A stretch of 64,000 bases of DNA, from positions 1 to 64,000 of the forward strand of contig NZ_LMOH01000026.1 of the NCBI RefSeq assembly GCF_001423245.1, read 5' to 3'. Every line of letters begins with the position of its first letter. Position 1 is the stretch's first letter. The translations under genes and the position numbers were made by a program. The notes under the pieces were generated by a model. The model made no database searches. It saw only the letters and a program-made list of their open reading frames with translations, and was not told the origin of the DNA. Shown here one piece after another: positions 1-30,316 of this stretch. Source of the stretch: Aureimonas sp. Leaf324. Lineage in GTDB: Bacteria; Pseudomonadota; Alphaproteobacteria; Rhizobiales; Rhizobiaceae.

Positions 1-93
1 CCACACCTCCGGTCGGGCTACGCCCTCCCTACGATGCGGCCCGCGCCGTCCGTCTCATCCTGATTGACGCCCAGTCTCATCCTGTTTGTCGCC
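1..93. mobile_element. End of a probable IS21-family insertion sequence
   Basis: Two 20-bp direct repeats that agree at 18 of 20 positions lie at 52-71 and 74-93, both of the form GTCTCATCCTG.TTG.CGCC. Multiple short direct repeats near the ends, used as transposase binding sites, are typical of IS21-family elements. The element would continue to the left of the window. The DnaQ-like reading frame that follows loses similarity exactly where the inner repeat begins, which supports an insertion junction near 93/94. No transposase gene is in view, so the family assignment is an inference. Confidence 0.5.
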
Positions 94-390
94 GCGCATT
101 TCCACATCGGCTATCGCGACCACTGACTGGCCTGGGAACCTTGAAGCTGAAGGATTTGGTTGTGGAAGCTGCACTTTCCGCAGCACACGGTAATCCCCAG
201 ATGCATGCAGGCATTCCAATGCCGCAAGCTTTTCGTCGGCACTTGGACCTATGCCTAGAAGGGAGGGCTCGGTTTGACTGTCGCCAATGCCCTGGAACGG
301 AACATGGACGCTTCCTCGGCCGAGCACTTGTGTATGCCACGACCCACGCACCCGTACCGATGCGTCAACGTCGTTTCTGAAGTGGACCAT
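94..390 (-). pseudogene. DnaQ-like 3'-5' exonuclease, N-terminal remnant cut by the IS
   Basis: The leftward frame contains the stretch LAALECLHASGDYRVLRKVQ followed by a proline-rich linker and VAIADVEMRGDKQDE. This is how stand-alone DnaQ/PolIII-epsilon-like 3'-5' exonucleases begin: a GDYRVLR segment, then the first exonuclease motif, normally V-D-x-E-T-T-G. The motif is degenerate here (ADVEMRG) and the frame then runs into the IS repeat at 93 and stops at 55. The rest of the exonuclease domain is missing. The start is uncertain; an ATG at 390 is the first plausible one, but the conserved part begins only near 235. The interpretation rests on pattern recognition of a short segment. Confidence 0.5.
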
Positions 391-409
391 GTTGGTACTG
401 CAGTGCTGA

Positions 410-778
410 CTATGATTCGGACGGACTGAGGTTGCGTGATCTTGCGTCACGCTCGGCACGAAACGCCGCCCTCCAATCCGGCACGGCATCAATGGCGTCT
501 CGTAGCCGTATTCGGTGCTTAGCCTTAGTCGACAGCCATTGGTTCGGGAGCTTACGTCGCCTCAACGCGCTCATAGACGCCACAAGCATGATCCCTGTCG
601 GTGCCATCGGCACAACGCCGATACGCCGCTCTTCCAAACCACACAGAATGCTGAATGTTAGAAATGATAGCAGTCGGTCGTCGAGTTCGGAGATATGTGG
701 ATCCACCGACTCACGAACGGCATTCTTTAAAGCACCCCAGAATGCGATATCATTTAGGTTCGGAGCGATGGAAGACAT
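410..778 (-). CDS. Hypothetical protein
   Basis: A 122-residue protein with no family I recognise. It is mixed in character, with a short hydrophobic stretch (LLSFLTFSILCGL) near the middle and a basic, arginine-rich C-terminal third, and no signal peptide. The ATG at 778 is preferred to a TTG one codon upstream; a weak GTAGGGCGG lies upstream. The gene follows the 97-residue gene above it after only 11 bp, so the two are probably co-transcribed. Codon use is less G+C-biased than in the chromosomal genes beyond 8.6 kb. It could be accessory cargo of a mobile element; no function can be given. Confidence 0.45.
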   Translation of the reverse strand: MSSIAPNLNDIAFWGALKNAVRESVDPHISELDDRLLSFLTFSILCGLEERRIGVVPMAPTGIMLVASMSALRRRKLPNQWLSTKAKHRIRLRDAIDAVPDWRAAFRAERDARSRNLSPSES

Positions 779-789
779 CAACGGCCGCC

Positions 790-1083
790 CTACTCATGGT
801 GGAAGGCGCGTAGAGCTGACGTCACCGCCTCCGGGGGTGTGCCGATGTAAATAAGCAGTTCGCGCGATCCGTCGTGCAGGCGCATCATGATCTCTCGTTC
901 TTCTCGCTCTTCCTTGGGAACCTGCAGATGCTGCATAGCTAGCCAGCCGATGTAGGGGACGAGCACATGTGTTCGCGTGCCATCGGACTCCTCTAAGAAG
1001 AGTACCCGACCTTTAACGAGATCCAGCGCCTCCTGGACACGGCCATCGAACCTCTCACGATACCAGGTATGCTCTTCGAACAT
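790..1083 (-). CDS. Hypothetical small protein
   Basis: A 97-residue acidic protein with no recognised family. It begins MFEEHTWYRERFDGRVQEAL and has a central beta-like stretch (RVLFLEESDGTRTHVLVPYI), then a charged segment rich in E and R. No membrane segment or signal peptide is visible. An AAGGG ribosome-binding site sits about 7 bp before the ATG at 1083, and the next gene starts 11 bp after the stop, so this looks like a real two-gene unit. It lies in the A+T-richer island, between the IS remnant and the Tn7-like module. Confidence 0.5.
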   Translation of the reverse strand: MFEEHTWYRERFDGRVQEALDLVKGRVLFLEESDGTRTHVLVPYIGWLAMQHLQVPKEEREEREIMMRLHDGSRELLIYIGTPPEAVTSALRAFHHE

Positions 1084-1144
1084 GATCGACCCTTACTAGA
1101 TGATTAAATATCTCTATTTTTACACGGCATGACGTATTAGAATT

Positions 1145-1438
1145 CTATGATTCCGGTGAATCTCGAATCTCGATAAATCTTCCGACTTCCTCGAACAAAC
1201 GATGATGTTCACTAGCCAAGGCTGCATGGCGAGGATTGGAAGCAAGCTGCTGGACAACGGACAAATCCGCCCCTTTCCGTTCTAAATCCCGAAGAGCACT
1301 GCGCACTTCGGCGAGTTTTCGGGCGCTGGTCTTAATGCGCAGAGCATCACCCAAGGTGAGTTCAGCGAGCTTATCCTCCCTCAGATTGAAGTCCGCTGTG
1401 TTATTACCTTCTCCAGACCTCTTGCACATCAACATCAT
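1145..1438 (-). CDS. Hypothetical small helical protein
   Basis: About 97 residues, predicted from composition to be mainly helical and highly charged (for instance SARKLAEVRSALRDLERKGAD). There is no signal peptide, and no family is recognised. Three ATG codons lie close together at 1438, 1435 and 1429; a GGTAGGA directly upstream of 1438 is better spaced for 1429, so the protein may begin MCKRSGEG. It reads in the same direction as the two genes to its left and the regulator to its right. Possible roles such as a toxin-antitoxin component or an anti-phage accessory cannot be supported from sequence alone. Confidence 0.45.
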   Translation of the reverse strand: MMLMCKRSGEGNNTADFNLREDKLAELTLGDALRIKTSARKLAEVRSALRDLERKGADLSVVQQLASNPRHAALASEHHRLFEEVGRFIEIRDSPES

Positions 1439-1759
1439 TCCTACCGAAGCGGCCTTTTAAGATTGGCGACGAACCAGTCACCGAGGCGACCATCATCCAA
1501 GGATTTCACCCATACTTACTGGAGTCAATGTTTTTATAAATGACTCGATGTCATCTAGAATGACATTGCGACCAGAGTGAAAAATTATAAGCGACTTGTT
1601 GTCTACCTTAATGAATATGGGTATCGGGCTGGTCTTGAATTACATAACGCACCATCTGCGTAAACCTACCGTCAGATAGCACTGAGCATCGGGCGGCCAT
1701 CAATCGCCTCTCCGCCCAGCGTCTTGAGGACACATTGCTTCGGTAGAATTATCGATCGC
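1439..1759. other. Non-coding gap, possible left end of the Tn7-like element
   Basis: No convincing gene is present in these 321 bp, which are A+T-rich. The gap holds a perfect 7-bp inverted repeat (ATGTCAT / ATGACAT around CTAGA) at 1548-1566 and four copies of GCGAC at 1466, 1486, 1568 and 1591. A Tn7-like left end would be expected hereabouts or further left, but no pair of ends with a matching target duplication could be identified. Confidence 0.4.
1548..1566. promoter_or_regulatory. Perfect inverted repeat (7-5-7)
   Basis: The arms ATGTCAT and ATGACAT flank CTAGA. The repeat lies upstream of the 97-residue gene ending at 1145 and downstream of the MerR-like gene. It could be an operator, or part of a transposon end, since the left arm contains TGTCA. 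The palindrome is seen directly; the role is inferred. Confidence 0.35.
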
Positions 1760-2431
1760 TTACAGCACTTTTGAGTGCACGCCGGGCTTTGCGACTTTCG
1801 AATTTGGCATTCCGCGACTGAACACGCGACGAATGACTGGCCCCGCAACGGCTTCACCTGGGTTCTCCTGGAGCAAAACGAGCGGTCTACCTAATGCGTT
1901 GGCGAACCTCACCGACAGAGTCACCAAGTTTATGGTCAAGACCTCGCAAGGGCTTCCAATGTCTGTCCAACTGGGAGGATGAGGCTGGAGAGTGAACGCG
2001 CACCCGTCCGACGAGATCAACAGAGTTCCACCCTCATCACCGTCCCAGCCCGATATCTCTCGAAGCAATACCTCATCAGCCTCGAGTCTTTGATATACGT
2101 CTTCTGACGTCTGAGGGGATCCCGTAAACTCCACAACACCATCCGCATTCATCATTGCATGATGCAACAGCAATGATTGGTATCTATCGGCCAACTCCAA
2201 TGCTTCTGTTTGAGAGGTTCCTCGAGAGCGCAGGATCTTCGCAAGGCAGAACCGAGCCGCATCGTGCGCTGTATAGCTTACTCGCGTGCCGGACTTCTTC
2301 GGCAGCACCCCCCGGCTTCGCCAAAGCCTCTGAAGTTCGGCTGTGAAGCCTGACGCCCGCTCAACCTCGGCAGCGCTGAGGGGATGCCAGGTGACCTGAA
2401 TACGGCCAGTCAGTTCACGCACTCGATCCAT
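1760..2431 (-). CDS. MerR-like transcriptional regulator, divergent from tnsA
   Basis: A 223-residue protein. Residues about 15-70 resemble the winged helix-turn-helix of MerR-type regulators: LSAAEVERASGF, then LQRLWRSRGVLP, then a wing and a tyrosine-containing FTAHD/YTAHDAARF-like segment. The C-terminal two thirds match nothing I know and lack an obvious metal-binding cysteine cluster. The ATG at 2431 is chosen because GGAGAGGTGAA sits just upstream; ATGs at 2452 and 2455 also exist. The gene is back to back with tnsA. MerR-family regulators sit in a similar place in some CRISPR-associated and other Tn7-like transposons, where they repress transposition genes. A regulatory role here is inferred from fold and position. 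Confidence 0.6.
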   Translation of the reverse strand: MDRVRELTGRIQVTWHPLSAAEVERASGFTAELQRLWRSRGVLPKKSGTRVSYTAHDAARFCLAKILRSRGTSQTEALELADRYQSLLLHHAMMNADGVVEFTGSPQTSEDVYQRLEADEVLLREISGWDGDEGGTLLISSDGCAFTLQPHPPSWTDIGSPCEVLTINLVTLSVRFANALGRPLVLLQENPGEAVAGPVIRRVFSRGMPNSKVAKPGVHSKVL

Positions 2432-2501
2432 TTCACCTCTCCGATACGGCATCATTGTTCACGATATGTGCCGGTTGTGCAATACCAGAAAAAACGTATC
2501 A

Positions 2502-2520
2502 TTGACACATATTGGATATG
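2502..2520 (+). promoter_or_regulatory. Putative tns promoter/operator: TTGACA followed by 13-bp palindrome
   Basis: A consensus -35 hexamer TTGACA (2502-2507) is followed at once by the palindrome CATAT-TGG-ATATG (2508-2520). MerR-type regulators bind dyads inside the -35/-10 spacer. No good -10 hexamer is visible, so the promoter is provisional. If it is real, tnsA cannot start at the ATG at 2466 and the downstream GTG at 2586 becomes the likely start. Confidence 0.4.
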
Positions 2521-2585
2521 ACGCGGTTGAAACCTCCGTGGGTATCGGAGGATCCCAAACCCCAGTCGAATGCAGGAACCTCGAT

Positions 2586-3296
2586 GTGAGCCAGATAACG
2601 TCCACAGCCGATGCCGCGATTGCCGATGCATGGGTGCCCCTTAAACCGAGCAGTGCATCACGCGGGGTTCGCGCAAAAAGCTCAGCTTCCGCGCGCGTCT
2701 TTCTCCAAGACGAAGGCAGGGAAGTAATGCTCGAAAGTGCGGCCGAGCATAGGATCAGGCTCGTTCTCAAAGCCCGTCCGGATGTTGCCAAGATCCAAGA
2801 GCAACCGACACCGATCACCTACGTCGACAGCGAGGGTAAGCCGCGCCAACGCACAGTCGATTTTCTGGTGACGCTCACCAGCGGCGAACAGATTGCGGTA
2901 GAGGTCAAAGCGAGCGTCCGGGTTACCGAGAAGCTTCGGAATGAGATCGCTTGCATCGCGGATCAGATGTCCCCGTCATATGCTAGTGGCGTGATCCTCC
3001 TGACGGAAACGTCGACACCGCGGGCTATCGTTACGGACGCATTGCTCTTCGCCTCCGTGAAGCGGGATGCGGACTACGACGCGTACCGCGCGTTGACTGA
3101 CGTAGCACGCGGTTTGGCAAGTCCAATATCGATCCGCGATCTAGGCGCCCGACTGAAGCGACCCACGAGTGGGTTCCGAGCAGTTGTTCGCTTGATCGCC
3201 GAGGGCGTTCTCGAAAGAGTTGAAAGCGTCCCCCTGTCCCTCGACACACTCGTCCGCGCCATGCCCATCGATGACGCGACTGGAGGGACCCCGTGA
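2586..3296 (+). CDS. tnsA: TnsA-like transposon endonuclease
   Basis: Together with TnsB, TnsA excises the element; it cuts the 5' ends of the transposon. The protein has the TnsA restriction-endonuclease-like core: an acidic residue in MLESAAEHRI, an aspartate in RQRTVDFLV and the V-E-V-K motif in EQIAVEVKAS, which together form the E...D...(E/Q)xK active site. A helical C-terminal part follows, which in TnsA contacts TnsC. GTG at 2586 with AGGA 8 bp upstream gives 236 residues, near the family size. An in-frame ATG at 2466 would add 40 residues that look unlike TnsA and would cover the putative promoter. The stop overlaps the GTG start of tnsB by 4 bp. Confidence 0.8.
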   Translation: MSQITSTADAAIADAWVPLKPSSASRGVRAKSSASARVFLQDEGREVMLESAAEHRIRLVLKARPDVAKIQEQPTPITYVDSEGKPRQRTVDFLVTLTSGEQIAVEVKASVRVTEKLRNEIACIADQMSPSYASGVILLTETSTPRAIVTDALLFASVKRDADYDAYRALTDVARGLASPISIRDLGARLKRPTSGFRAVVRLIAEGVLERVESVPLSLDTLVRAMPIDDATGGTP

Positions 3297-5560
3297 ACCC
3301 TAGCACGCTGCGGTATCGCATGGGTCCGCTCGATCGACTATCGATCAACGGAGAGCACTACCGACCGGTTTCGACTGACAGCGACGGCCACGTTCTGTGT
3401 AAGGACGCGGCTCCCGACCACCACATACGCTTTTCGCATAAAGATGTAGCCGACCTGCATGCTACCGGCGCGCTAGTCCGCGACGCCGATCATTTTTCGT
3501 TTGCAGGCGCTCAACACCGGCAGCAAGCTCGAAGCACGCTGCTCAGTCAGATCTCACCGAAACGACAGGACGATTTTCTCCATCGCCTCCGTACGGTGAA
3601 CGCATTTCTGGGTCTCGAACGGCAGGGCGAGGTGACACGCAGTGCGCTAGGATTCCAGAAAGCCGCTACCCTCATTGCCGCTCAACTGCAAAATGAAGAA
3701 TTCGAAGCCGATAAGGAAGAGGCCGACGCTCGTGCTAGCGACGCGAGAGCTGTAGCAGAAGCTCAAGACCTTGCGAGACCGAAAGGCTCGCGGAAGGGCG
3801 TGCGCCGACATGACTCGCGGCGCCCACCGATCGAGCGGCAGAACAGGTTACAGGCCCGAGAACCGGTGAGCGGTCGTACGTTAGCGTCCTGGGTTGGTCG
3901 CTTTGAGAAGAGCGGCGGCGACCCGGTGGGGCTTTGCGACGGATACGGCAATTGCGGTAGCAAGCCGAACCTTGATCCTGTGGTCGAAGTGATGATTGCG
4001 AGGATCATCAAAGATGAGTTCCTTACGGAGAAGCGTCCGTCGATCCGTCATTGTCATCGGTTAGTGACAAGCGCCCTGAGGATAGCGAACATCGAGCGAG
4101 TGCGGGATGGCAGTCCATCCCTGACGGTGCCGAGCTACTCAGCGTTCAAGACACGAGCGAAACAGGTTCCAGCTTTCACTCTCGTACGCACACGTCATGG
4201 GCAGGAAACTGCCGCAACCAAATTCGCTATGTCTTCGGGCGGGGCTGGCGCCTGGCTTCCACTTCAACGTGTAGAGACGGACGAGTGGACCGCTCATGTC
4301 CACCTTATCAAAGGCAGACCTGTCCCCCGGTCCGAACTCGAACACTACCGTGGTCAAGAGGTTGAGACGGTCCGCATTGTAGTAGCAATCGTGATCGATT
4401 GTGCAACTCGCTACATTCTCGGCTTATCAGTCGCCGAAACAGCATCTTCCGATAATGCAAAGAATGCGCTTCGGATGGCGATGTCGGATAAAAGCGCTGT
4501 CGCTCGTGCCGTAGGTGCTGGAAACGAATGGGGACCACACACCGGTATTATGGAGATATTCTCAGATGCCGGATCTTCCTTTGGAAAGACATATCAGATT
4601 GCTGCAATGGGTTTAGGTATAACCCACAGCTGGGGACCAGCCAAACAACCAAAGCTACGCTCGACCCTTGAGCGATTCAACAGGACGCTCGACCAGGTCT
4701 TTCTGCCATTTTTTACTGGTCGTACTTTCAGTAATACTGTTGTTGCGGGTTCTTACAACCCTGAACGAAGAGCATCCTTGACGGTTGTCGATTTCAACAA
4801 CGCTCTAATTCGATTTGTTGTTGATATCTACCATTCCACACCGCATGAAGGGCTGCATGGAAGAACGCCGGAAATGGCATGGCGCGATGCGATAAAAAGC
4901 TACGAGTTCCCTTTTCCACCAAATGGCGACTGCATGCGCGCCAACCTCGGCACCATTTATGAAAGAAAAGTCTCCGGAGAAGGAGTTCACTTCTCCAACA
5001 TACCATACAACTCATCTGAATTGCAACAATTTCGCCTGACCAGCGGCGATAATCAGATCATGATCGCTGTCGACCATAATGATATCAATCATATCTCTGG
5101 TTTATTTAATGGAAAGTGGCAGACTCTTGTATCTCCTGAAAACCGCCTTCAAGGCGTCCCATTGATAACATGGCGGGCGATGCAGAATGACATGAGGCGT
5201 CGTTACAAGGCCGAGGCTGCTGTCAGTAGCGCAACCGTTTTTGCCGCGATTGAACGCATCCAACATACAAGTCGGTCCGCGATCATTGATGCTGGACTTG
5301 GCGCCATCCGCCCATCTGACGAGGAGATCCGTCGGGACGAAGGCACTCTCCGTATCGGCTGGTCAACACCATATGCTCCACCCTCGAGCGGTAACCTCTC
5401 AGACCAAGACCTACTCGCCGTAGGAGAGTTCATCCCCAGCATGGGCCGAACTGTAGCCACCCATAACCACCGGCAGCCGTCAGAACCAGCGCGAGTGGGT
5501 GCAAGCAATAACTCAGTTGGCGATGACGACTCGGATTGGTTCCTCGAAAATGGCGACTGA
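3293..5560 (+). CDS. tnsB: TnsB-like DDE transposase (Mu/Tn7 type)
   Basis: The strand-transfer enzyme of the element, 755 residues, of the retroviral-integrase (rve) superfamily with a Mu-type C-terminal domain. The catalytic triad can be placed at D330 (QRVETDEW), D425 (IFSDAGSSFG) and E460 (RSTLERFNRTLD). The long N-terminal part before about residue 310 would hold the DNA-end-binding helix-turn-helix domains; a basic linker rich in R and K lies near 160-190. It begins with GTG inside the tnsA stop (GTGA overlap), and its own end overlaps tnsC. All catalytic residues are present and there is no frameshift, so the enzyme looks intact. Confidence 0.88.
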   Translation: MNPSTLRYRMGPLDRLSINGEHYRPVSTDSDGHVLCKDAAPDHHIRFSHKDVADLHATGALVRDADHFSFAGAQHRQQARSTLLSQISPKRQDDFLHRLRTVNAFLGLERQGEVTRSALGFQKAATLIAAQLQNEEFEADKEEADARASDARAVAEAQDLARPKGSRKGVRRHDSRRPPIERQNRLQAREPVSGRTLASWVGRFEKSGGDPVGLCDGYGNCGSKPNLDPVVEVMIARIIKDEFLTEKRPSIRHCHRLVTSALRIANIERVRDGSPSLTVPSYSAFKTRAKQVPAFTLVRTRHGQETAATKFAMSSGGAGAWLPLQRVETDEWTAHVHLIKGRPVPRSELEHYRGQEVETVRIVVAIVIDCATRYILGLSVAETASSDNAKNALRMAMSDKSAVARAVGAGNEWGPHTGIMEIFSDAGSSFGKTYQIAAMGLGITHSWGPAKQPKLRSTLERFNRTLDQVFLPFFTGRTFSNTVVAGSYNPERRASLTVVDFNNALIRFVVDIYHSTPHEGLHGRTPEMAWRDAIKSYEFPFPPNGDCMRANLGTIYERKVSGEGVHFSNIPYNSSELQQFRLTSGDNQIMIAVDHNDINHISGLFNGKWQTLVSPENRLQGVPLITWRAMQNDMRRRYKAEAAVSSATVFAAIERIQHTSRSAIIDAGLGAIRPSDEEIRRDEGTLRIGWSTPYAPPSSGNLSDQDLLAVGEFIPSMGRTVATHNHRQPSEPARVGASNNSVGDDDSDWFLENGD

Positions 5561-6617
5561 CGAAGCAAGCACGGGCAACGAACATTCCCGGTCAGGAACA
5601 ATGCGCGCCATAACCGCCGCCATGAGCGAAACGGAATGGGATCGTATCCACGCTGACGAAACATCCAACGCTACATTCATCGAAACCGACCGCCTTCATC
5701 GATTGCGCGAACATGTCGGTGAGTTGCTGCGGAGGACTGCCACGCGTAGGGACTCTAGTCAGAGCCTCGATAGCTCGAACCGCGTCGCGGGCCGAGCGCT
5801 CTTTTGCGTAGGAGATGCAGGTTCCGGAAAGACCGTCACGCTTCGGCGGGCAATTCTGTCGTTCTCAGCGCTTCGTCCTGTCGACGAAGGGGAACCCCGT
5901 CGGCCAATCCTGTCCATCAACGCACCAGATCAGCCTAGTCTGAACGCCATATACGGACGCCTACTTCAGTGCATGGACTACCCCTCCATGGCTGCGCGAT
6001 CGACCGAAGTCCTGCGTCAGCGCTTCCTCGCACAGTCCGAGCGCCTGGGTGTTGTGCTCATACACATTGATGATGCTGCGAACATGACTGTTGGACAGGA
6101 CGCATTTCGAGCACGACGTTCGGCCCAGAAAATCGCGGCGTGCTTGCGAAGCTTGATGGAGGAGGAACCACCCTTCTCGTTGATCGTCTCTGGCTTGGAG
6201 CCCACGCTACAGCTGCTGGAGCACGATGACGCGCTGGCGCGCCGCGCACAGCAAGTAGGGCTCTCTCGGGTTCGGCCTCAAGAACATAAGGTCATTGCCC
6301 ATGCGCTTCACCTGAGGGCGAAGGACCTGGGGTTAGTTTTTTCCCCCGATCGAGATCTGATCGGTCGCTTGGTTCATGCAGCCAATCAGCAGTTCGGCTT
6401 ATCCTTCGAACTGGCCTGGCACGCCATCGCGCTTGCACAAGCCGTCGGCGCGACCGAACTCGGGGCGTGCCATTTCGCCGACGCTTACTTTCGACGAACC
6501 AGCTGCCACCCGGGGCTGAATGTCTTCGAAGCACCGGACTGGGAACGGATCGATACGACCGCGATCATACCGAAGCTCGTAGATGATCCTTCTGTTACGC
6601 TGCGTAGGAGGCGTTGA
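5550..6617 (+). CDS. tnsC: TnsC-like AAA+ ATPase transposition regulator
   Basis: The ATP-dependent switch that bridges the target selector and the TnsAB transposase. The Walker A motif GDAGSGKT is near residues 88-95 and the Walker B is VLIHIDDAANM near 169-179, both well formed; an arginine-rich segment follows (ALARRAQQVGLSRVRP). At about 355 residues it is in the size range of TnsC/TniB proteins. The start is uncertain: the ATG at 5550 overlaps the tnsB stop by 11 bp, while a GTG at 5499 would add 17 residues and ATG 5523 is also possible. The end overlaps the tniQ start by one base (TGATG), so translation is probably coupled. Confidence 0.82.
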   Translation: MATDEASTGNEHSRSGTMRAITAAMSETEWDRIHADETSNATFIETDRLHRLREHVGELLRRTATRRDSSQSLDSSNRVAGRALFCVGDAGSGKTVTLRRAILSFSALRPVDEGEPRRPILSINAPDQPSLNAIYGRLLQCMDYPSMAARSTEVLRQRFLAQSERLGVVLIHIDDAANMTVGQDAFRARRSAQKIAACLRSLMEEEPPFSLIVSGLEPTLQLLEHDDALARRAQQVGLSRVRPQEHKVIAHALHLRAKDLGLVFSPDRDLIGRLVHAANQQFGLSFELAWHAIALAQAVGATELGACHFADAYFRRTSCHPGLNVFEAPDWERIDTTAIIPKLVDDPSVTLRRRR

Positions 6618-8440
6618 TGCCTCTCCTCGCGCGTGTTCGCCAACAGAACACCGAGTTGACCCAAGCCAGTTTTCTTGATCGATCCGCAGCCGTTAGCGGC
6701 TGCCCATCCGTCGCGAGCTTCTGTTTTGACCTGGGCCTTGACTTAAAGGATCTACGGAAAGGCTGCCCTGAGCAGCTTACCCGGTTAGCGGAATGTGTCG
6801 GCTCGGATCCAGCGTTGGCAGTAGCCAATGCAATCCGAGAAGTTGGCCCTCGGTCGTTCGAACTGCGGCGTTGCCACGTGATTTCGAACATGCTTCGGAC
6901 AGACGAGGTGGCCCTCTGTCCGGGCTGCGTTAACGACGATTTGATCAACGGCCCTGCGCGACGCACTCCGTACGACAATGTTTGGCTACGCATAGCTTGG
7001 CACTTCCGGGGGATCGAGACCTGCAACATTCATAACTATCGGCTGGAGCGGTTCTTGCTAGCGCGTACCAGATACGATCAGCGAAGCTTCGTGGTTTTCG
7101 GATGGGATGCAGCCTATCAACTCCAGTCTGGAGCCCGCAGTCCTGTGCCGCAGGAGCCAACCGAGTTCGAGAACTATATGACAGGACGTTTAAACGGAGC
7201 CGAGTTTGGGACTTGGCTAGATACGATCCCGTTCTCAGAGGTGGTGCGATTATGCAGCACATTTGGTCGGCTGACTTACGAGAGGAGAGGCCATCAGGCG
7301 GAAGCGAGCATCGCGGGCAGGGAGAGCCGCACTATACGGGATGCTGGCTTCCAGCTACTCAAACCATCTCGGCGATCGATTCCGGAATTTCTTACCACTT
7401 CGTTTTCAGAGCACCGTGGAGCAGTTACGGCTATCGAGGTACACAAGATTTTGGGTACCTATCTTACGAGTATACTTGAGCGCCGCGGTTACGAGACGAC
7501 CAGCTTCAGCGTGTTTCGTGAAGAGGTCGCAGAATTTATCAAACAGAACCGTAGAACGCCAAGTCCTGCTGCCTCAAAACCCCGAACAGGCTGTAAATCG
7601 GAAGGCAAGAAGCCGTATAAGATCTGTGAAGTAGCGGAAATCTTGAGCCTATCTCCTCAGACGGTTGCCACATTCGCTTCTGAGGCACAGTTGCCGTTCA
7701 ATGAGCATGGAGCTTTGACTGACCACGCTGTCGATCTGATACGGGCAAAGCATAAAGCACTCTGTTCGATGGAGCAGGTCCGCGACGCTCTTGGAATACC
7801 GAATGGTGGGGTCTGGCGTCTCGCGGAAGCTGGGTTGTTGGGAACAGTTCACCGGGGCAATAGAAAGCAATCGAAGAGGAAATTTGATCCCGGATCTGCT
7901 TCGACCCTTCTGGACGCACTACGTGACGCAGCATCTGCGTCATCGAGTGTTGCGGATGGGATTACGCTAAATGAAGCTGCCAGAAAATATCGCTGCGGCC
8001 TCGATACAGTTGTTAAATTGATACTATCGAGGCGCCTGAAATCCATCTCATATATCCCAGGCATAACGGGACTCGCCTCGCTGAGGTTATGTGAAAAGGA
8101 ATTCTTCCAGAAATTGACGGGTGTCAATTGGTTCGGAGTAACTATCCGACAAGCGTGTCAGCGCTTGGGTGTTTCATACATTGCCTTGAAGGGCCTAGTC
8201 CTTCTTGGGTTTCTAGAGGAAATTCGACTTGGCAGCGCCACGGCTAAAATAGTTTTCATATCTGAATCGTCGTTGATTGAATTCGATGCGAAATATATCA
8301 CGGCGAGTGCAGCTGCATCATTACATCATCAGCACAGTAGTGCGATGATCCGAGAGCTGGAGCGGAAGGGGATCAAGCCGGACATTACGCGAGGCGTATG
8401 CGGCGCAAATTTCTATTTGCGGTGGCGGTTCGGCCTGTAA
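6617..8440 (+). CDS. tniQ: TniQ/TnsD-like target-site selector with serial HTH units
   Basis: Members of this family pick the insertion site and recruit TnsC. The N-terminal half has the TniQ zinc site: C101 and C104 in CPGC, then C136 and H139 in CNIHNYRL. At 607 residues it is long, in the range of TnsD rather than short TniQ. From about residue 330 onward there are at least five helix-turn-helix-like units, for example ICEVAEILSLSPQTVATFA, GITLNEAARKYRCGLDTVVK and VTIRQACQRLGVSYIALKGL. These suggest recognition of an extended DNA sequence. ATG 6617 is chosen because AGGAGG lies 6 bp upstream and the start overlaps the tnsC stop. It is the last gene of the operon and faces the end of the chromosomal fumarase gene. 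Confidence 0.82.
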   Translation: MPLLARVRQQNTELTQASFLDRSAAVSGCPSVASFCFDLGLDLKDLRKGCPEQLTRLAECVGSDPALAVANAIREVGPRSFELRRCHVISNMLRTDEVALCPGCVNDDLINGPARRTPYDNVWLRIAWHFRGIETCNIHNYRLERFLLARTRYDQRSFVVFGWDAAYQLQSGARSPVPQEPTEFENYMTGRLNGAEFGTWLDTIPFSEVVRLCSTFGRLTYERRGHQAEASIAGRESRTIRDAGFQLLKPSRRSIPEFLTTSFSEHRGAVTAIEVHKILGTYLTSILERRGYETTSFSVFREEVAEFIKQNRRTPSPAASKPRTGCKSEGKKPYKICEVAEILSLSPQTVATFASEAQLPFNEHGALTDHAVDLIRAKHKALCSMEQVRDALGIPNGGVWRLAEAGLLGTVHRGNRKQSKRKFDPGSASTLLDALRDAASASSSVADGITLNEAARKYRCGLDTVVKLILSRRLKSISYIPGITGLASLRLCEKEFFQKLTGVNWFGVTIRQACQRLGVSYIALKGLVLLGFLEEIRLGSATAKIVFISESSLIEFDAKYITASAAASLHHQHSSAMIRELERKGIKPDITRGVCGANFYLRWRFGL

Positions 8441-8602
8441 CATTCGGAGCGTGCGAGCTGGTATCCAGAGCCCCCCTAGGCCATGACAATCTTCCGCGCT
8501 CATTGATGCAAATCCTGAACTGCCAAGCAGTGTGAAAACCCTTTGTTTTCAATGCCGTTCGATGCAGAATTCTTGGGCTCGCTACAACGAGAACCCGCCG
8601 CG
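8441..8602. other. Gap between tniQ and fumarase, probable site of the right transposon end
   Basis: The gap separates the convergent tniQ and fumarase genes. It contains an inverted repeat TGAAAAC-CCTTT-GTTTTCA at 8533-8551 that could act as a terminator. TGACA at 8484-8488 would fit a Tn7-like terminal TGTCA read inward, but no partner or target duplication was confirmed. Base composition changes to chromosomal G+C-rich sequence near 8560. Confidence 0.4.
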
Positions 8603-10141
8603 TCAGGCCGGCACCGAGCCTTTGACGGTCACCGCCGGGCGGCGCCACTGCGAGGGGCCGGTGCGGTGGATCGACGTGCCCTCGGCATCGACCGCCACGG
8701 TGACCGGCATGTCCTCCACAACGAATTCGTGGATCGCCTCCATGCCGAGATCGGCGAAGGCGAGGACCCGCGCCGCCTTCACGGCCTTCGAGACGAGATA
8801 GGCGGCGCCGCCGACGGCGATGAGGTAGGCCGCGCCGTGGCGACGGATGCTCTCGATCGCGGCGGGTCCCCGTTCGGCTTTGCCGATCATCACGAGAAGG
8901 CCGGTGGCGTCGAGCACGAGATCGGTGAAGCCGTCCATGCGCGTGGCCGTGGTCGGCCCCGCCGGTCCGACGACCTCCTCGCGCACCGGGTCGACCGGCC
9001 CGACATAGTAGATCGCGCGGTCTTTGAGATCCACCGGCAGCGGCTCGCCGCGGCGGATCATGTCGACTATCCGCTTGTGGGCGGCGTCGCGCCCGGTCAG
9101 CATCCGCCCCGACAGGAGCAGCGTCTCGCCGGCCCGCCAGGTCGCCACCTCCTCGCGCGTCAGGCGGCCGAGATCGATGCGCCGCGCGCCCGCGCTCTGC
9201 TCGCCCATGTCGAGCTCGGGCCAGAGGGAGAGGTCCGGCGGCACCAGCCGGGCCGGCCCCGAGCCGTCGAGGGTAAAGGTGAGATGCCGGTCGGCGGCGC
9301 ATTGTGGGATCAAGCCGACGGGCTTGGAGGCCGCATGGCAGGGATGCGAGCGGATCTTCACGTCGACGACCGTCGTCAGGCCGCCGAGCCCCTGCGCCCC
9401 GATGCCGAGCGCGTTGACGCGCTCGTAGATCTCGAGCCGCATCTCCTCGATCGGCGAGGACGGGCCTCGGCGGAGGAGTTCGGCCATGTCGATCGGCTCG
9501 AGAAGGGCTTCCTTCGCCATCATCATCGCCTTCTCGGCCGTGCCGCCGACGCCGATCCCGAGCAGCCCCGGCGGGCACCAGCCGGCGCCGAGCGTCTCGA
9601 CCGTCTCGACCACCCAGTCCGACACGGAGGCCGCGGGCGCGAGGTTGGCGAACTTCGCCTTGTTCTCCGAACCGCCGCCCTTGGCGGCGACCGTGATCGT
9701 CAGCGCTTCACCGGCCACAACATCGAAATGGACGACGGCCGGCGTGTTGTCGCCGGTGTTCGTTCGGCCGAACAGCGGATCACGGACGATCGAGGCGCGG
9801 AGCGGATTGTCGGGGTCGGTGTAGGCGCGCGCGACGCCCTCGTTGATGACGTCGGTGAGCGGGCGCGTCGTCTCGATACGCGCGCCGATGCCGAGCTTGA
9901 CGAAGACGTTGACCGTGCCCGTGTCCTGGCAGATCGGGCGCCGGCCGAAGGCCGCCATGCGCGAGTTGATCAGGATCTGGCGGATTGCGTCGCGCGCTGC
10001 CGGGCTCTCCTCGCGCTCATAGGCGCTCGTGAGGCTTCGGACGAAGCTCGGCGGGTGGAACACCGCGATGTATTGCAGCGCGTCGGCGACGGAGGAAACG
10101 AGGTCCGCCTCGCGGATCGGGGCGCCTTGCGAATTCATCAT
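8603..10141 (-). CDS. Class I fumarate hydratase / mesaconase
   Basis: An oxygen-sensitive [4Fe-4S] hydro-lyase of 512 residues with both the alpha and beta fumarase domains in one chain. The cysteine motifs of class I fumarases are present: RPICQDTGT in the N-terminal domain, GWCPPG, and HPCHAASKPVG; the beta-domain signature SGRMLTGRDAAHKR follows. Class I enzymes hydrate fumarate to malate, and some also hydrate mesaconate to (S)-citramalate. The ATG overlaps the stop of the CitE-like lyase gene (ATGA), and a CoA-transferase gene lies across a divergent promoter, so mesaconase activity is a good possibility; sequence alone cannot separate it from fumarase. Its 3' end borders the Tn7-like element. 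Confidence 0.85.
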   Translation of the reverse strand: MMNSQGAPIREADLVSSVADALQYIAVFHPPSFVRSLTSAYEREESPAARDAIRQILINSRMAAFGRRPICQDTGTVNVFVKLGIGARIETTRPLTDVINEGVARAYTDPDNPLRASIVRDPLFGRTNTGDNTPAVVHFDVVAGEALTITVAAKGGGSENKAKFANLAPAASVSDWVVETVETLGAGWCPPGLLGIGVGGTAEKAMMMAKEALLEPIDMAELLRRGPSSPIEEMRLEIYERVNALGIGAQGLGGLTTVVDVKIRSHPCHAASKPVGLIPQCAADRHLTFTLDGSGPARLVPPDLSLWPELDMGEQSAGARRIDLGRLTREEVATWRAGETLLLSGRMLTGRDAAHKRIVDMIRRGEPLPVDLKDRAIYYVGPVDPVREEVVGPAGPTTATRMDGFTDLVLDATGLLVMIGKAERGPAAIESIRRHGAAYLIAVGGAAYLVSKAVKAARVLAFADLGMEAIHEFVVEDMPVTVAVDAEGTSIHRTGPSQWRRPAVTVKGSVPA

Positions 10142-10965
10142 CGTCCTCCCCGGCCCGCCCGCGCGGCGGCCGCCAAAATCGCCTGTGCGCGCAGGATCAC
10201 CGGCGCGTCCACCATCTCGCCGTCGAGCGACACGGCGCCCCCGCCCTGCCCGGCGTCGAGAACCCGCCCCGCCCAGGCGACCGCCTCGGCGCCCGGCGCG
10301 AACCCGCGCGCGGCCGGCGGAACCTGGGCGGGATGGATCAGGAGCTTGGCGGAAAAGCCGAGGTCGGCGGCATAGGCCGCGTCGGCCTCGATCAGGGCTT
10401 CGTCGCGCGTCGCCGCCGTCACCCCGTCGATCGGGGCCGGACGAGACTTGAGGCGGCTCGCGAGCACGAACTCGTGGCGGGCGGAGGCCAGCGCCTCGCG
10501 CGTCGGCCGGCAGCCGAGATCGGCGGCATAGTCGAAGGTTCCAAAGGCAAGGCGCGCGGCGACGTTCGCGATCTCCCGGATCTCGCCGAGCCCGAGCGCG
10601 CTCTCGACCAGCGCCACCACGGGCCGGCCCGACGCCTCGGCGACCCGCTCGACATCGGCCGCGCACTCCGCCTTTGCCAGCATCACGCCTGCCACGTCGA
10701 TCCTTGCAGCGAGGGCGAGGTCCGCCGCGTGCGCAGGTTCGGCCACTGCGTTGATGCGCAGGAGAACGGCGCAGGGCGCGCTCGCGATCTCGGACGCGGC
10801 AGCCTCGATCGCCGCGCGGGCGCGCGCCTTGGCGTCCGGCGCGACGGCGTCCTCGAGATCGAGGATCACCGCGTCGGCGCCGGCCGAAAAGGCCTTTGCG
10901 AAACGCTCCGGGCGGTCGCCCGGCACGAAGAGGAACAGCGCGGCGTCGCTGATCGTGGAGGGCAT
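10138..10965 (-). CDS. CitE-like HpcH/HpaI aldolase family lyase (citramalyl-/malyl-CoA lyase type)
   Basis: A 275-residue TIM-barrel C-C lyase of the CitE family. Visible motifs are LFVPGDRPERFAKA at the N-terminus, VILDLEDAV, an arginine in LRINA, and the acidic metal ligands in VALVESALG and FGTFDYAADLG. Relatives cleave (S)-citramalyl-CoA to acetyl-CoA and pyruvate, or malyl-type CoA esters. It lacks CitD/CitF partners, so it is not a citrate lyase subunit. The ATG at 10965 has GGGAAG 5 bp upstream; a longer frame to 11028 is less likely. It is the first gene of a two-gene unit with the fumarase/mesaconase and is divergent from the CoA-transferase gene, which would make its citramalyl-CoA substrate. 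Confidence 0.78.
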   Translation of the reverse strand: MPSTISDAALFLFVPGDRPERFAKAFSAGADAVILDLEDAVAPDAKARARAAIEAAASEIASAPCAVLLRINAVAEPAHAADLALAARIDVAGVMLAKAECAADVERVAEASGRPVVALVESALGLGEIREIANVAARLAFGTFDYAADLGCRPTREALASARHEFVLASRLKSRPAPIDGVTAATRDEALIEADAAYAADLGFSAKLLIHPAQVPPAARGFAPGAEAVAWAGRVLDAGQGGGAVSLDGEMVDAPVILRAQAILAAAARAGRGGR

Positions 10966-11183: not shown

Positions 11184-12332
11184 ATGAACACCGATCTCGA
11201 GGGTCTTGTCGTCGTCTCCGTCGAACAGGCGGTCGCGGCCCCCTACCTGTCGAGCCGGCTGGCGGACGCGGGTGCGCGCGTCATCAAGGTGGAGCGGCCG
11301 GAGGGCGATTTCGCCCGCGGCTACGACCATCTGGTGAAGGGCGAAAGCGCCTATTTCGTCTGGCTCAACCGGGGCAAGGAATCGGTCTGCCTCGACCTGA
11401 AGTCGGAGGCCGACAAGGCGGTGCTCGCCCGCATGATCGATGCGGCCGACATCTTCGTCCAGAACCTGGCGCCCGGCGCGATCGACAAGCTCGGCTTCGC
11501 GCCCGCCGAGCTCCGCCGCCGCAACCCGCGCCTCATCACCTGCTCGATCTCGGGCTACGGCGACGAGGGCCCCTATCGCGACCTCAAGGCCTACGATCTC
11601 CTCGTGCAGGCGGAGAGCGGCCTGTCGAACATCACCGGCAACGAGCACGGCATGGCGCGCGTCGGCGTGTCGGTCTGCGACATCGCCGCCGGCATGACGG
11701 CCTTCCAGGCGGTGCTGCAGGCGCTGATCGGCCGGGCGAAGACCGGCGAAGGCCGGCACATCGACGTCTCGCTCTTCCACGCGCTCGCCGACTGGATGAA
11801 CGTGCCGTACCTGCAATACGTCTACGGCGGCAAGGAGCCGGCGCGCTCGGGGCTCAACCACCCGACCATCGCGCCCTACGGTGCCTATGCCTGCCGCGAC
11901 GGGGCCTCCGTCCTGTTCTCGATCCAGAACGAGCGGGAATGGGCCAATCTGTGCCGCGACGTCCTGTTGGTGCCGGATCTCGCGGGCGAACCGCTGTTTT
12001 CCGACAACTCCCGGCGCGTCGCCAACCGCGAGAAGCTCGATGCGATCGTCACGGGTGCCTTCGCCATGGCGGACCGGCCGGAGATGATCGAGCGGCTGGA
12101 AAAGGCGCGCATCGCCTATGGCCGCGTCAGCTCGATGCAGGATCTTGCCGACCACCCGCAGAACCGCTTCGTGACGGTCGAGACGCCGGCCGGCCCGGTG
12201 GCCTATCTCGCGCCCGGCGCGCGCTTCGACGGGCAGGATCCGGCGTTCCGTGCGGTTCCGGCGCTCGGGCAGCAGACCGAGGCGCTGCGCCGCGAATTCG
12301 CCCCCGCCGGCCGTGTGGAGGACGCGGCCTGA
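11184..12332 (+). CDS. Type III CoA-transferase (CaiB/BaiF family)
   Basis: A 382-residue family III CoA-transferase. The catalytic aspartate is D138 in KAYDLLVQAESGL, which matches the conserved D of formyl-CoA transferase. Other family marks are GARVIKVERPEGDFAR near the N-terminus, WLNRGKESVCLDLKS, NLAPGAIDKLGF and LITCSISGYG. These enzymes move CoA from a donor such as succinyl-CoA to a carboxylic acid. With a CitE-like lyase, a MaoC hydratase and a class I fumarase/mesaconase nearby, itaconate, mesaconate or citramalate is the likely acceptor, as for Ict in itaconate degradation. An SDR gene follows after 64 bp on the same strand. Confidence 0.8.
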   Translation: MNTDLEGLVVVSVEQAVAAPYLSSRLADAGARVIKVERPEGDFARGYDHLVKGESAYFVWLNRGKESVCLDLKSEADKAVLARMIDAADIFVQNLAPGAIDKLGFAPAELRRRNPRLITCSISGYGDEGPYRDLKAYDLLVQAESGLSNITGNEHGMARVGVSVCDIAAGMTAFQAVLQALIGRAKTGEGRHIDVSLFHALADWMNVPYLQYVYGGKEPARSGLNHPTIAPYGAYACRDGASVLFSIQNEREWANLCRDVLLVPDLAGEPLFSDNSRRVANREKLDAIVTGAFAMADRPEMIERLEKARIAYGRVSSMQDLADHPQNRFVTVETPAGPVAYLAPGARFDGQDPAFRAVPALGQQTEALRREFAPAGRVEDAA

Positions 12333-12396
12333 GCGGGCTCGCCGCGGTCGGGCCTTCCGCCATATGCTCTGCCATGATTTGGGAGGATCGCACGAC

Positions 12397-13152
12397 ATGA
12401 CGGGACGGCTGGACGGGAAATCGGCGCTGGTGACGGGCGCGGCATCGGGGTTCGGCGCGGCGATCGCCAAGGCCTTCGCACGCGAGGGCGCGCGCATCGT
12501 GATCATGGACCTCGACGAGGACGGCGGGCGGCGCGTCGCGGGCGAGATCGGCGCGGCGGCCGTGAGCCTCAAGGGCGACGTGACGCGGCGCGAGGACTTC
12601 GAGCGGGCGGTGGCCGAGGCCGCGCGGCACGGCGGCCAGCTCGACATCCTCGTCAACAATGCCGGCTGGACCCATCGCAACAAGCCGCTGGAGGAGGTCA
12701 CGGAGGACGAGTTCGACCGGGTCTACGCCATCAACGTCAAGTCGATCTACCACTCGGTGCAGGCGAGCCTGCCGGTCTTCTCGGCTCAGGGGTCGGGCGT
12801 CATCCTCAACATCGGATCGACCGCGGGCCTGCGCCCGCGCCCCGGCCTCACCTGGTACAACGGCTCGAAGGGCGCCGTGAACATGCTCAGCCGCTCGCTG
12901 GCGGTGGAGCTCGCCCCACGCGGCATCCGCGTCAACGCCATCGCCCCGGTGATGGGCGCGACTGCGCTGCTCGAAAGCTTCATGGGCCTGCCCGACACGC
13001 CGGAGAACCGCGCGAAGTTCATCGCGACGATCCCGCTCGGCCGCCTGTCGGAGCCCGACGACATTGCGGGCGCCTGCCTCTATCTCGCCTCCGACGAGGC
13101 CCGCTTCGTGACGGGCGTCATCCTCGAGGTCGACGGCGGACGGACGATCTGA
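12397..13152 (+). CDS. Short-chain dehydrogenase/reductase (SDR)
   Basis: A classical SDR of 251 residues. The cofactor loop is TGAASGFG near residue 14, the structural motif is NNAG, and the catalytic serine-tyrosine-lysine set lies in GSTAG...WYNGSKGA. An aspartate at the end of the second strand (IVIMDLDEDG) suggests NAD rather than NADP. GGGAGG lies 10 bp before the ATG. It follows the CoA-transferase gene on the same strand and converges with the threonate operon with only 4 bp between stops. Sugar-acid or hydroxyacid oxidation would suit the surroundings, but the substrate cannot be deduced. Confidence 0.75.
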   Translation: MTGRLDGKSALVTGAASGFGAAIAKAFAREGARIVIMDLDEDGGRRVAGEIGAAAVSLKGDVTRREDFERAVAEAARHGGQLDILVNNAGWTHRNKPLEEVTEDEFDRVYAINVKSIYHSVQASLPVFSAQGSGVILNIGSTAGLRPRPGLTWYNGSKGAVNMLSRSLAVELAPRGIRVNAIAPVMGATALLESFMGLPDTPENRAKFIATIPLGRLSEPDDIAGACLYLASDEARFVTGVILEVDGGRTI

Positions 13153-19037: not shown

Positions 19038-20351
19038 CTAGTCCAGGCTCCTGCCGCGCGGCTCGACGTCGACCATGCGGATCGCCGCGGCCGCGAGGAT
19101 CAGGAACCCGGAGAGGAGCCCAAGCGCCCCCGTGAAGTTCGCCGCCATCAGCGGCGCGACGATCGAGGGCGCGAGCAGTCCGCCGAACCGCGCCATGGCG
19201 CCGGCCGTGCCCATGCCGGTCGCCCGCAGCGACGTCGGATAGATTTCCGGCGTGAAGGCGTAGATCGCGCCCCAAGTGCCGAGCAGCGCGAAGGACAGGA
19301 GCAGCGTCGAGCCGACGACGAGCGCCGGGGCCGCCCCGAGACTGAACAGCATCGAGCCGGCGGCGCTCAGAAGCAGAAAGCCGATCAGCGTCGGCCGCCG
19401 GCCCCAGCGCTCCACGCCGTAGGCGGCGAGCGCGTAACCGGGGAGCTGGACCAGGGCGATCAGAACCAGGAATTCCGGCCCGCGCAGGAAACCGAAGCCC
19501 TCGCCCGCCAGCCGCACGGGCAGGTAGACGAAGACGCCGTAGTAGGAGATCGAAACCAGCGCCCAGGCCGCCAGCACCAAGACGGTGCGCCGGCGCAGCG
19601 CCGCCGAGAACAGGTCGGAGATCGGGGCCTTCGCGCGCGTCTCCGGCTCGAGCACGCCGATCGTCACCCGCGAGCCGTTGATGTCGGCGACCCGCTGGAG
19701 CACGCGGCGGGCCTCCTCGCCGCGACCCGATCTGGCGAGATAGACCGGCGTTTCCGGCACGAAGAAGCGCAAGGCCAAGCCGATCAGGGCGGGCAGGCCG
19801 GTGCACAGGAAGATCGTGCGCCAGGCCTCGCCCCCGAGGCTTCCGGCATAGAGGGAAACGAGGGCGAGGAGAATGGTGCCGACGGCCCAGAAGGACTCCA
19901 GAAGCACCAGCCACCGGCCGCGCCGGTCGGACGGCAGGAACTCGGCCAGCATCGTGTAGTCCACCGGCAGCGTGCCGCCGACGCCGACCCCGGTCAGGAA
20001 GCGCAGCACGAGGAGCCAGGCGAAATCCGGCGCGAAGGCGGAGGCGATGCCGAACACGGCGTCGATCAGGACCGAGGCGATCAGCACCGGGCGGCGGCCG
20101 AAACGATCCGCCAGCCGTCCGAAGACGAAGGCGCCGACCAGCATGCCGACGAAGAACAGCGTCCCGGTCTGCAGGGCCTGCGGCACACCGAGGCCGAAGC
20201 TTGCGGCGATCGACGGCGCAGTGAAGCCGATCGCCAGCACCTGCATAGCGTCGGCGGCCCAGACGAGGCCGAACACGCCGAACAGTCGAAACTGGAAGCG
20301 CCCGAGACCGGCTGCGCGCAGTCCCTCGTCGACGGTGATGGTGCCCGGCAT
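19038..20351 (-). CDS. MFS transporter (sugar/acid family)
   Basis: A 437-residue inner-membrane transporter with about twelve hydrophobic segments. The MFS signature GRLADRFGRRPVL lies between segments 2 and 3, with a second copy, YGVERWGRRPTLIG, in the C-terminal half, and PETPVYLARSGR ends the first half, as in the sugar-porter and aromatic-acid/H+ symporter groups. ATG 20351 is chosen over an upstream extension that is arginine-rich and not membrane-like. The gene is 120 bp upstream of the acyl-CoA dehydrogenase on the same strand, so uptake of one of the acids degraded by the neighbouring enzymes is plausible. Specificity is unknown. Confidence 0.82.
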   Translation of the reverse strand: MPGTITVDEGLRAAGLGRFQFRLFGVFGLVWAADAMQVLAIGFTAPSIAASFGLGVPQALQTGTLFFVGMLVGAFVFGRLADRFGRRPVLIASVLIDAVFGIASAFAPDFAWLLVLRFLTGVGVGGTLPVDYTMLAEFLPSDRRGRWLVLLESFWAVGTILLALVSLYAGSLGGEAWRTIFLCTGLPALIGLALRFFVPETPVYLARSGRGEEARRVLQRVADINGSRVTIGVLEPETRAKAPISDLFSAALRRRTVLVLAAWALVSISYYGVFVYLPVRLAGEGFGFLRGPEFLVLIALVQLPGYALAAYGVERWGRRPTLIGFLLLSAAGSMLFSLGAAPALVVGSTLLLSFALLGTWGAIYAFTPEIYPTSLRATGMGTAGAMARFGGLLAPSIVAPLMAANFTGALGLLSGFLILAAAAIRMVDVEPRGRSLD

Positions 20352-30276: not shown

Positions 30277-30316
30277 GGGGCTCGGCGTCGCAGAAATCGG
30301 CCCCCGCGGCAAGCCG

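What the first reader, a model, noticed from the sequence alone, without database searches (positions are those of the whole stretch)
1760..8440. Intact-looking TnsABC-TniQ transposition module with a divergent MerR-like regulator and no defined cargo
All catalytic motifs of TnsA (E..D..VEVK), TnsB (D330, D425, E460), TnsC (Walker A and B) and TniQ (C-x2-C, C-x2-H) are present with 1-11 bp overlaps and no frameshift, so the module may be active. Unlike Tn7, it is tniQ rather than tnsA that faces the chromosome, with a regulator on the other side. The combination of TnsA, a long TniQ and a MerR-like regulator outside a CRISPR context is the best candidate here for an undescribed element.
Basis: partly seen in the sequence, partly recalled or inferred. 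Interest (0 to 1): 0.75.

Follow-up and report, generated by a model that had tools for sequence, protein, structure and literature searches.

The report
Tn7-like transposon carrying defence genes
The genes are one end of an apparently intact 'jumping' element of the Tn7 kind that landed next to a leucine tRNA gene, probably in an Aureimonas bacterium, and carries about 33 kilobases of cargo, part of which resembles genes that protect bacteria from viruses.

Summary
The tnsA-tnsB-tnsC-tniQ module is real and intact. Joining the flanks restores the empty site of two congeners (758 and 757 of 800 bases identical). The element has 5'-TGT...ACA-3' ends, a 5-bp target duplication (CTCGT) and TnsB-type sites at matching offsets. 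It sits between the 3' ends of a tRNA-Leu(CAA) gene and a fumarase gene. The contig break is a repeated IS21 element, giving about 42.6 kb in all. 'No defined cargo' is therefore wrong: about 33 kb of cargo lies upstream of tnsA, including TIR proteins and a 5mC-methyltransferase/DndH-like/Vsr cassette. TniQ is TnsD-like: a TniQ core plus an HTH array. No CRISPR was found in the sequenced part. TnsB falls in an alphaproteobacterial clade apart from Tn7, Tn6900, Tn402 and Tn6022-like references; no relative found exceeds about 32% identity over most of its length. It is an undescribed member of a known kind (Tn7-like, protein-guided homing, defence-type cargo). Target choice (tRNA-Leu rather than fumarase), activity and MerR control are inferred.

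The parts
1..98 (.). end of a repeated IS21-family element at the contig break (interrupts the transposon)
   Evidence: 97-98 bp identical at the starts of four other contigs and twice near C12:816110-816305; the C12 copy spans about 2640 bp to a match with C29:1-102 in the same orientation and codes for IstB_IS21 and a Mu-transpos_C_2 protein
1..8586 (.). left-end (tniQ-side) part of the Tn7-like element; the other part is G000:C29:1-31605
   Evidence: junctions, TSD and empty site; G+C 54.9% against 69.8% in window 8592-64000
1760..2455 (-). MerR-like regulator, divergent from tnsA (a start further in, near 2431, is possible)
   Evidence: Pfam MerR_1 1.6e-6; no homologue by tblastn in 81 loci of related modules, where TnsB hit 81 of 81 as control
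2466..3296 (+). tnsA, endonuclease subunit (later in-frame starts at 2475, 2502 and 2538 are possible)
   Evidence: Pfam Tn7_TnsA-like_N 5.8e-8; E94, D132 and K148 conserved; starts listed
3293..5560 (+). tnsB, DDE transposase, 755 aa
5550..6617 (+). tnsC, AAA+ regulator (TniB family)
   Evidence: Pfam TniB 1.9e-13; Walker A and B conserved
6617..8440 (+). tniQ, TnsD-like target selector: TniQ core plus an array of HTH domains (about five by reading the predicted secondary structure)
   Evidence: Pfam TniQ and HTH_17; model mean pLDDT 84.0; PDB TniQ Z 13.8, a TnsD (8v32) Z 9.6, Xis/BldC/Par-type HTH Z 8-9
8554..8577 (-). putative TnsB site of the left end (AATTCTGCAT core, +9 from the terminus)
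   Evidence: core shared at the same offset with the right end on C29; right-end sites at +9 and +30
8584..8586 (.). left-end terminus (ACA; reads TGTAGCG inward)
8587..8591 (.). target-site duplication ACGAG (CTCGT on the other strand)
   Evidence: same 5 bp flank the right end on C29:31606-31610
8603..10138 (-). flanking fumarate hydratase gene (start approximate); its stop is 11 bp from the TSD; the alternative attachment gene
   Evidence: Pfam Fumerase 1.3e-91 and Fumerase_C 2.9e-80; collinear with G164 and G152 at 93-94% identity from 8588 on

Best explanation
A Tn7-like cut-and-paste transposon of about 42.6 kb: right end - about 33 kb of cargo (interrupted by an IS21 copy) - merR-like gene - tnsA-tnsB-tnsC-tniQ - left end. 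It is inserted 3' of a tRNA-Leu(CAA) gene in a chromosome that is probably of Aureimonas. Most likely mechanism: TnsB binds the end sites; TnsA and TnsB excise the element; the long TniQ acts like TnsD, binding the 3' part of the tRNA-Leu gene through its HTH array; TnsC couples it to TnsAB, which insert just beyond the gene and leave a 5-bp duplication. The MerR-like protein probably represses or tunes the divergent tns operon. Shown: genes, motifs, ends, TSD, empty site, cargo. Inferred: activity, direct DNA binding by TniQ, tRNA-Leu as the recognised gene (about 0.65, fumarase about 0.25), regulation by MerR, and the 2.4 kb of unassembled IS21.
For: Empty sites in two congeners: joined flanks align end to end at 758 and 757 of 800. 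TSD CTCGT and TGT/ACA termini. The TnsB-site core TTCTGCAT lies at +17 in both ends and again at +38 in the right end. Motifs intact. TniQ model: core plus HTH array, with PDB TniQ entries as best matches and a TnsD (8v32) at Z 9.6. tRNA-Leu(CAA) is intact 13 bp from the TSD and is present in both empty sites. IS21 copies bridge the two contig ends in the right orientation on C12. No CRISPR-like repeats. Cargo profiles.
Against: No transposition was measured. The element is split over two contigs, so its continuity rests on the matching TSD, the empty site and the IS21 copies. The insertion lies between two 3' ends, so fumarase is not excluded as the target, and only one insertion is known at this site. 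Orientation towards attachment genes looks mixed among relatives: in L118 and L147 the tniQ-side end may face a tRNA (ends there unproven). Fold matches of single HTH domains at Z 8-9 are only suggestive.
Confidence: 0.83

Rival explanations
1. Same transposon, but TniQ recognises the 3' end of the fumarate hydratase gene rather than the tRNA gene.
For: The fumarase stop is 11 bp from the TSD on the tniQ side. A second related module in the genome appears tied to a protein-coding gene, probably nrdJ. In L118 and L147 it may be the tniQ-side end that lies by a tRNA, so the tniQ side may be the target side.
Against: No fumarase gene lies in the fetched stretches (up to about 10 kb each side, some much shorter) of the 81 module loci searched; TnsB as control hit 81 of 81. 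In Tn7 the end upstream of tnsA faces the target gene (recalled; that this end is called the right end is in PMC11406308, passages seen), and here that end faces the tRNA.
Confidence: 0.25
2. A decaying or immobile remnant kept only for its cargo.
For: An IS21 copy appears to interrupt it; no second copy was found in the genome, the only other TnsB being 30% identical.
Against: Both ends, the TSD and the catalytic motifs are intact, the four genes have no frameshift, and the site is empty in two congeners, so the insertion looks recent.
Confidence: 0.15
3. A CRISPR-guided (CAST) element whose Cas genes are lost or not assembled.
For: Among solved structures TnsB and TniQ are closest to I-F3 CAST proteins. 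A MerR-type regulator is known in V-K CASTs (PMC9938897, abstract and outline seen).
Against: No CRISPR-like direct repeats; no cas effector hit, only a generic DEDDh exonuclease; the missing stretch is explained by an IS21 copy; [quoted passage not shown]
Confidence: 0.03

Closest known systems
Tn7 (TnsABC+TnsD, glmS)
   Same: TnsA, TnsB, TnsC and a TnsD-like TniQ; TGT/ACA ends with TnsB-type sites; 5-bp TSD; insertion just beyond a gene's 3' end
   Different: no tnsE-like hit among the proteins scanned; TnsB outside the Tn7 lineage; site beside tRNA-Leu and fumarase; tns genes at the left end with cargo upstream of tnsA; divergent MerR-like gene
CAST I-D / I-B2 TnsD homing at tRNA genes (CyCAST, PmcCAST; PMC10293859, PMC11406308, passages read)
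   Same: protein-guided homing beyond a tRNA gene, for CyCAST also tRNA-Leu; long TnsD-like protein with C-terminal HTH domains
   Different: no Cas genes found; a single TniQ; TnsA and TnsB not fused; insertion 13 bp from the tRNA end (encoded CCA) instead of 30-33 nt
I-F3 CAST (Tn6900, Tn6677, Tn7016)
   Same: closest solved TnsB and TniQ-core relatives
   Different: no Cascade genes found; long TniQ; TnsB in a separate, fully supported alphaproteobacterial clade
Defence-carrying Tn7-like transposons surveyed in PMC8649781 (section 5 and passages read)
   Same: defence-type cargo; 'safe' site downstream of a tRNA
   Different: this element and its site were not seen in the parts read; the word 'alphaproteobacteria' does not occur in that main text; its supplementary tables were not seen
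CvkR, MerR-type repressor of V-K CAST (PMC9938897, abstract and outline)
   Same: MerR-type regulator beside transposition genes
   Different: V-K CAST of cyanobacteria; homology to the window's MerR-like protein was not tested directly

Membership tests
Tn7-like transposons | TnsB DDE transposase with its motifs | tested here: met
   D330, D425 and E460 invariant in 19 of 19; PDB TnsB matches; Pfam rve slightly under its cut-off
Tn7-like transposons | TnsA endonuclease as partner | tested here: met
Tn7-like transposons | TnsC AAA+ ATPase | tested here: met
Tn7-like transposons | TniQ/TnsD target selector | tested here: met
Tn7-like transposons | 5-bp TSD and TGT/ACA ends with TnsB sites | tested here: met
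   the site motif rests on three sites that were themselves used to define it
Tn7-like transposons | insertion at a fixed site beside a conserved gene | tested here: inconclusive
   one insertion seen; 13 bp from tRNA-Leu and 11 bp from the fumarase stop; no second element at this site was found
Tn7-like transposons | cut-and-paste transposition | not testable with these tools
   needs a transposition assay
CRISPR-associated transposon | Cas effector genes and CRISPR array | tested here: not met
   (20 C29 ORFs by Pfam, 16 by PADLOC) and 108 on the sequenced 40.2 kb; about 2.4 kb inferred to be IS21 was not seen
Tn5053/Tn402 family | TniA without TnsA, plus resolvase TniR (definition recalled; gene set seen in R751) | tested here: not met
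   TnsA present; the Tn402 TniA reference falls outside the clade
Tn6022 family | short TniQ with TnsF, inserted in comM (PMC10293859 section 11) | tested here: not met
   single 608-aa TniQ; site lies between tRNA-Leu and fumarase; Tn6022-like reference outside the clade; TnsF itself not searched for

The most novel reading that the evidence does not exclude
A distinct, widespread alphaproteobacterial lineage of Tn7-like elements with one long TniQ as selector that homes to 3' ends of different genes (tRNA-Leu here; other tRNAs and nrdJ in relatives), here with its own MerR-type control and carrying an uncharacterised 5mC-methyltransferase / DndH-like ATPase / Vsr defence cassette.
Probability: 0.45. 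Interest if true: 0.55.

Novelty: new member of a known kind. Interest (0 to 1): 0.42.

Why it matters
It turns a gene cluster with 'no cargo' into a delimited transposon with known ends, duplication and empty site, ready for direct tests of protein-guided (CRISPR-free) insertion in Alphaproteobacteria. Its relatives share the operon but seem to sit by different genes, so comparing TniQ C-termini could show how the HTH array encodes the target. Its cargo includes a conserved gene cassette that is not described as a unit in the profiles of PADLOC 2.0.0.

Tried and rejected
Looking for shared left-end motifs in relatives gave mostly chance matches; only L118 and L147 share GTGGCAATYGACA next to a tRNA, and a follow-up BLAST did not confirm their ends. 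A fumarase search in relatives failed because my script picked the wrong record as 'window' (the query was empty). One search repeated it with the right record, but its later part stopped with an error (redone); one search repeated the search with TnsB as a positive control (81 of 81 loci) and again found no fumarase, MerR or small-ORF homologue. The same slip affected the first row of the TnsA and TnsC profiles; conservation was recomputed with the right rows. Weak Pfam/PADLOC searches did not identify the 503- and 703-aa cargo proteins. A paper search for DndH with Vsr and cytosine methyltransferase listed nothing that by title fits the cassette. Considered and rejected: CAST, Tn402-type element, no insertion. 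A TniQ tree was not built. Absences from fold lists were not used as evidence.

In one search six loci that duplicate G-genome loci were left out by name, and loci with no TnsB match over 1,700 bp, or with stops in it, were dropped by the script; 70 rows were used. In one search TnsC rows of 450 aa or more were dropped (17 rows used), and TnsA was available for 14 of the 19 loci (15 rows with the window). In some searches the 81 loci include L109, L116, L128, L138, L157 and L159, near-copies of G-genome loci.
Full report
WHAT IS IN THE WINDOW. The window is G000:C26:1-64000 and starts at the first base of contig C26, which is 375,798 bp long. The operon tnsA 2466-3296, tnsB 3293-5560, tnsC 5550-6617 and tniQ 6617-8440 is intact, with a divergent MerR_1 protein at 2455-1760. 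TnsB D330, D425 and E460 are invariant in 19 of 19 aligned proteins; the four cysteine/histidine residues of the TniQ zinc motif are invariant in 18 of 18 and 44 of 44.

BOUNDARIES. In congeners G164 and G152 the DNA is collinear with the window from 8588 rightwards (93.3% and 94.1% identity over about 3.4 kb). On the other side of that point both have a tRNA-Leu(CAA) gene, its 3' end about 15 bp away. Searching the own genome with that sequence found the missing flank on C29:31606 onwards. The two junctions show element termini TGTAGCG... (left end, last base 8586) and TGTGCCG... (right end, last base C29:31605), flanked by the same 5 bp, CTCGT. Joining the flanks with one copy of the 5 bp gives a sequence that aligns over all 800 bases to both empty sites, 758 and 757 identical, in one block for G152 and in two blocks for G164, with no gap at the junction. 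Of 31 genomes searched with the right flank, only these two had it at 94-95% up to the junction. Other congeners matched only inside the gene and were not used as empty sites.

END SITES. TTCTGCAT occurs at offset 17 in both ends and again at 38 in the right end. A matrix built from these three sites scores them 22.5-24.7 bits, against a maximum of 13.7 in 55 kb of flanking DNA. That separation is partly built in, since the same sites define the matrix; the independent facts are the shared core at the same offset, the TGT starts and the duplication. No other strong site was found in the left end (next best 4.4 bits).

THE GAP. The first 97-98 bp of C26 occur at the starts of four other contigs and twice in C12. 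The first 97-105 bp of C29 recur on six other contigs. On C12:816208-818847 both lie in one element of about 2640 bp in the orientation expected, coding for IstB_IS21 and a Mu-transpos_C_2 protein. The inferred total is 8,586 + 31,605 + about 2,440 = about 42.6 kb. G+C is 54.9% (C26 part) and 61.4% (C29 part), against 69.8% in the rest of the window.

CARGO. Profiles on the C29 part (20 ORFs by Pfam, 16 by PADLOC): DEDDh exonuclease (C29:103-849); amidase/glucosaminidase (2564-3841); 1023-aa protein with an N-terminal TIR (5376-8447; a WD40-like part rests only on a weak THOC3 beta-propeller match); 346-aa protein whose residues 4-183 match the first 176 of 906 positions of PDC-S60 (9490-10530); 444-aa TIR/TPR-S-type protein (11323-12657); several unknowns; then a five-gene operon next to the right end: 5mC methyltransferase (29630-30967), 703 aa, 503 aa, 1822 aa with a DndH-like C-terminal ATPase, and Vsr (20096-20632). 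The 503- and 703-aa proteins have no PADLOC match and no Pfam match above cut-off. Both occur in the same four plasmid records. In the Sinorhizobium fredii and Rhizobium leguminosarum records the gene order methyltransferase-703-503-ATPase-Vsr is the same; in Pseudoalteromonas the order differs and no Vsr is listed; the Shinella record's neighbourhood was not read. Its function is inferred to be defence.

TniQ. AlphaFold2 on 44 aligned sequences gave mean pLDDT 84.0, pTM 0.63. Residues 4-318 match TniQ structures (Z 13.8, rmsd 5.5, 265 aligned, 6uvn), and residues 1-291 a TnsD in a TnsD-TnsC-DNA complex (8v32, Z 9.6, rmsd 6.2, 204 aligned). Residues 334-383 and 506-561 match HTH domains of pSK1 Par (Z 8.8) and of Xis and BldC (Z 8.2-9.1). 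The ten best Foldseek matches are TniQ entries. 'About five' HTH domains is my reading of the secondary structure. This is the architecture that PMC10293859 (passages and section 11 read) describes for TnsD proteins of protein-guided insertion. CyCAST TnsD homes 30-33 nt beyond tRNA-Leu (same paper, passage read).

RELATIVES. In 151 family genomes, 32 (own included) have a TnsB match at E<=0.001, the highest identity of a match to another element being 32%. In 385 class genomes 2, the own included, match at E<=1e-30. For TniQ, 3 of 397 order genomes, the own included, match at E<=1e-20. A genome-contig scan returned 62 loci at 24-39% identity in the best segment (39% and 34% only over short matches), with alphaproteobacterial names. 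All four genes lie on one strand in 67 of 81 loci, in the order A-B-C-Q in 66 (L050 has a second TnsB-like piece upstream); of the other 14, several are cut by contig ends and some (for example L120, L140) lack tnsC and tniQ next to tnsB. In the TnsB tree (70 rows; quick method) the window lies among 65 alphaproteobacterial rows apart from five references (support 100) on a long branch of 1.8; its place inside is unsure, and the tree warns of long branches among the references. A profile of the family scores I-F3 TnsB best among solved structures (1.3e-79), then V-K (1.8e-37) and Tn7 (1.9e-20).

TARGET. The TSD is 13 bp from the annotated tRNA-Leu (ARAGORN C29:31624-31710, encoded CCA included) and 17 bp from its acceptor stem; the fumarase stop is 11 bp away on the other side (fumarase by Pfam). 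No fumarase or MerR homologue was found by tblastn at E<=0.01 in the 81 loci searched, with TnsB found in 81 of 81 as control. In Tn7 the end upstream of tnsA faces the target gene (recalled), which here is the tRNA. Against this, L118 and L147 may have the tniQ-side end by a tRNA. I therefore hold tRNA-Leu at about 0.65.

LITERATURE. PMC8649781 (section 5 and passages), PMC10293859 (outline, passages, section 11), PMC11406308 (passages), PMC9938897 (abstract, outline). Searches for Tn7-like with Alphaproteobacteria, TniQ, tRNA, TnsB, attachment site and cargo (one search gave no paper; 20 of 23 and 15 of 26 papers listed) showed no paper that, by its listed title and start of abstract, describes this element or its site; most subscription journals are not in that library.

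VERDICT. An intact-looking, probably recent Tn7-like insertion with a TnsD-like selector and defence-type cargo: a new, divergent member of a known kind.

Noticed in passing
G000:C29:20096-30967 (L044:2096-12967): Five-gene cassette: 5mC methyltransferase, 703 aa, 503 aa, 1822-aa DndH-like ATPase, Vsr. Same order in Sinorhizobium and Rhizobium plasmids and a variant in Pseudoalteromonas; not a described unit in the PADLOC 2.0.0 profiles. Candidate undescribed restriction/defence system.
   Followed up: partly
G000:C12:about 53,690-169,780 (L045, L100): A second tnsABC-tniQ module in the same genome. Its tniQ-side flank matches DNA just downstream of a TSCPD-domain gene (probably nrdJ; name recalled, Pfam) in congener G151, and that gene ends at C12:53,646 in G000: possibly an element of about 116 kb in an nrdJ site with TSD GATGC (read by eye), or several stacked insertions.
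   Followed up: partly
G079:C9/C30 and G037:C1:1044710-1152313: Related modules in other genomes also appear linked to nrdJ 3' ends; G037 has a second nrdJ 3' fragment at the tniQ side.
   Followed up: partly
L118:8006-8105, L147:15268-15369, L115:8917-9010: Related modules lie by tRNA-Pro, tRNA-Arg and tRNA-Arg 3' ends; L118 and L147 share GTGGCAATYGACA ending 10 and 12 bp from the tRNA, perhaps element termini.
   Followed up: partly
window 410-1438: Three small minus-strand ORFs (123, 97, 97 aa) between the IS21 end and merR, without significant profile match (Pfam, PADLOC; two of them also PHROGs) and without tblastn match in 81 related loci.
   Followed up: yes
window 2432-2517: The longest merR and tnsA ORFs start only 10 bp apart, so the true starts may lie further in; the stretch holds two ATCATTG copies that could be operator sites (read by eye).
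   Followed up: no
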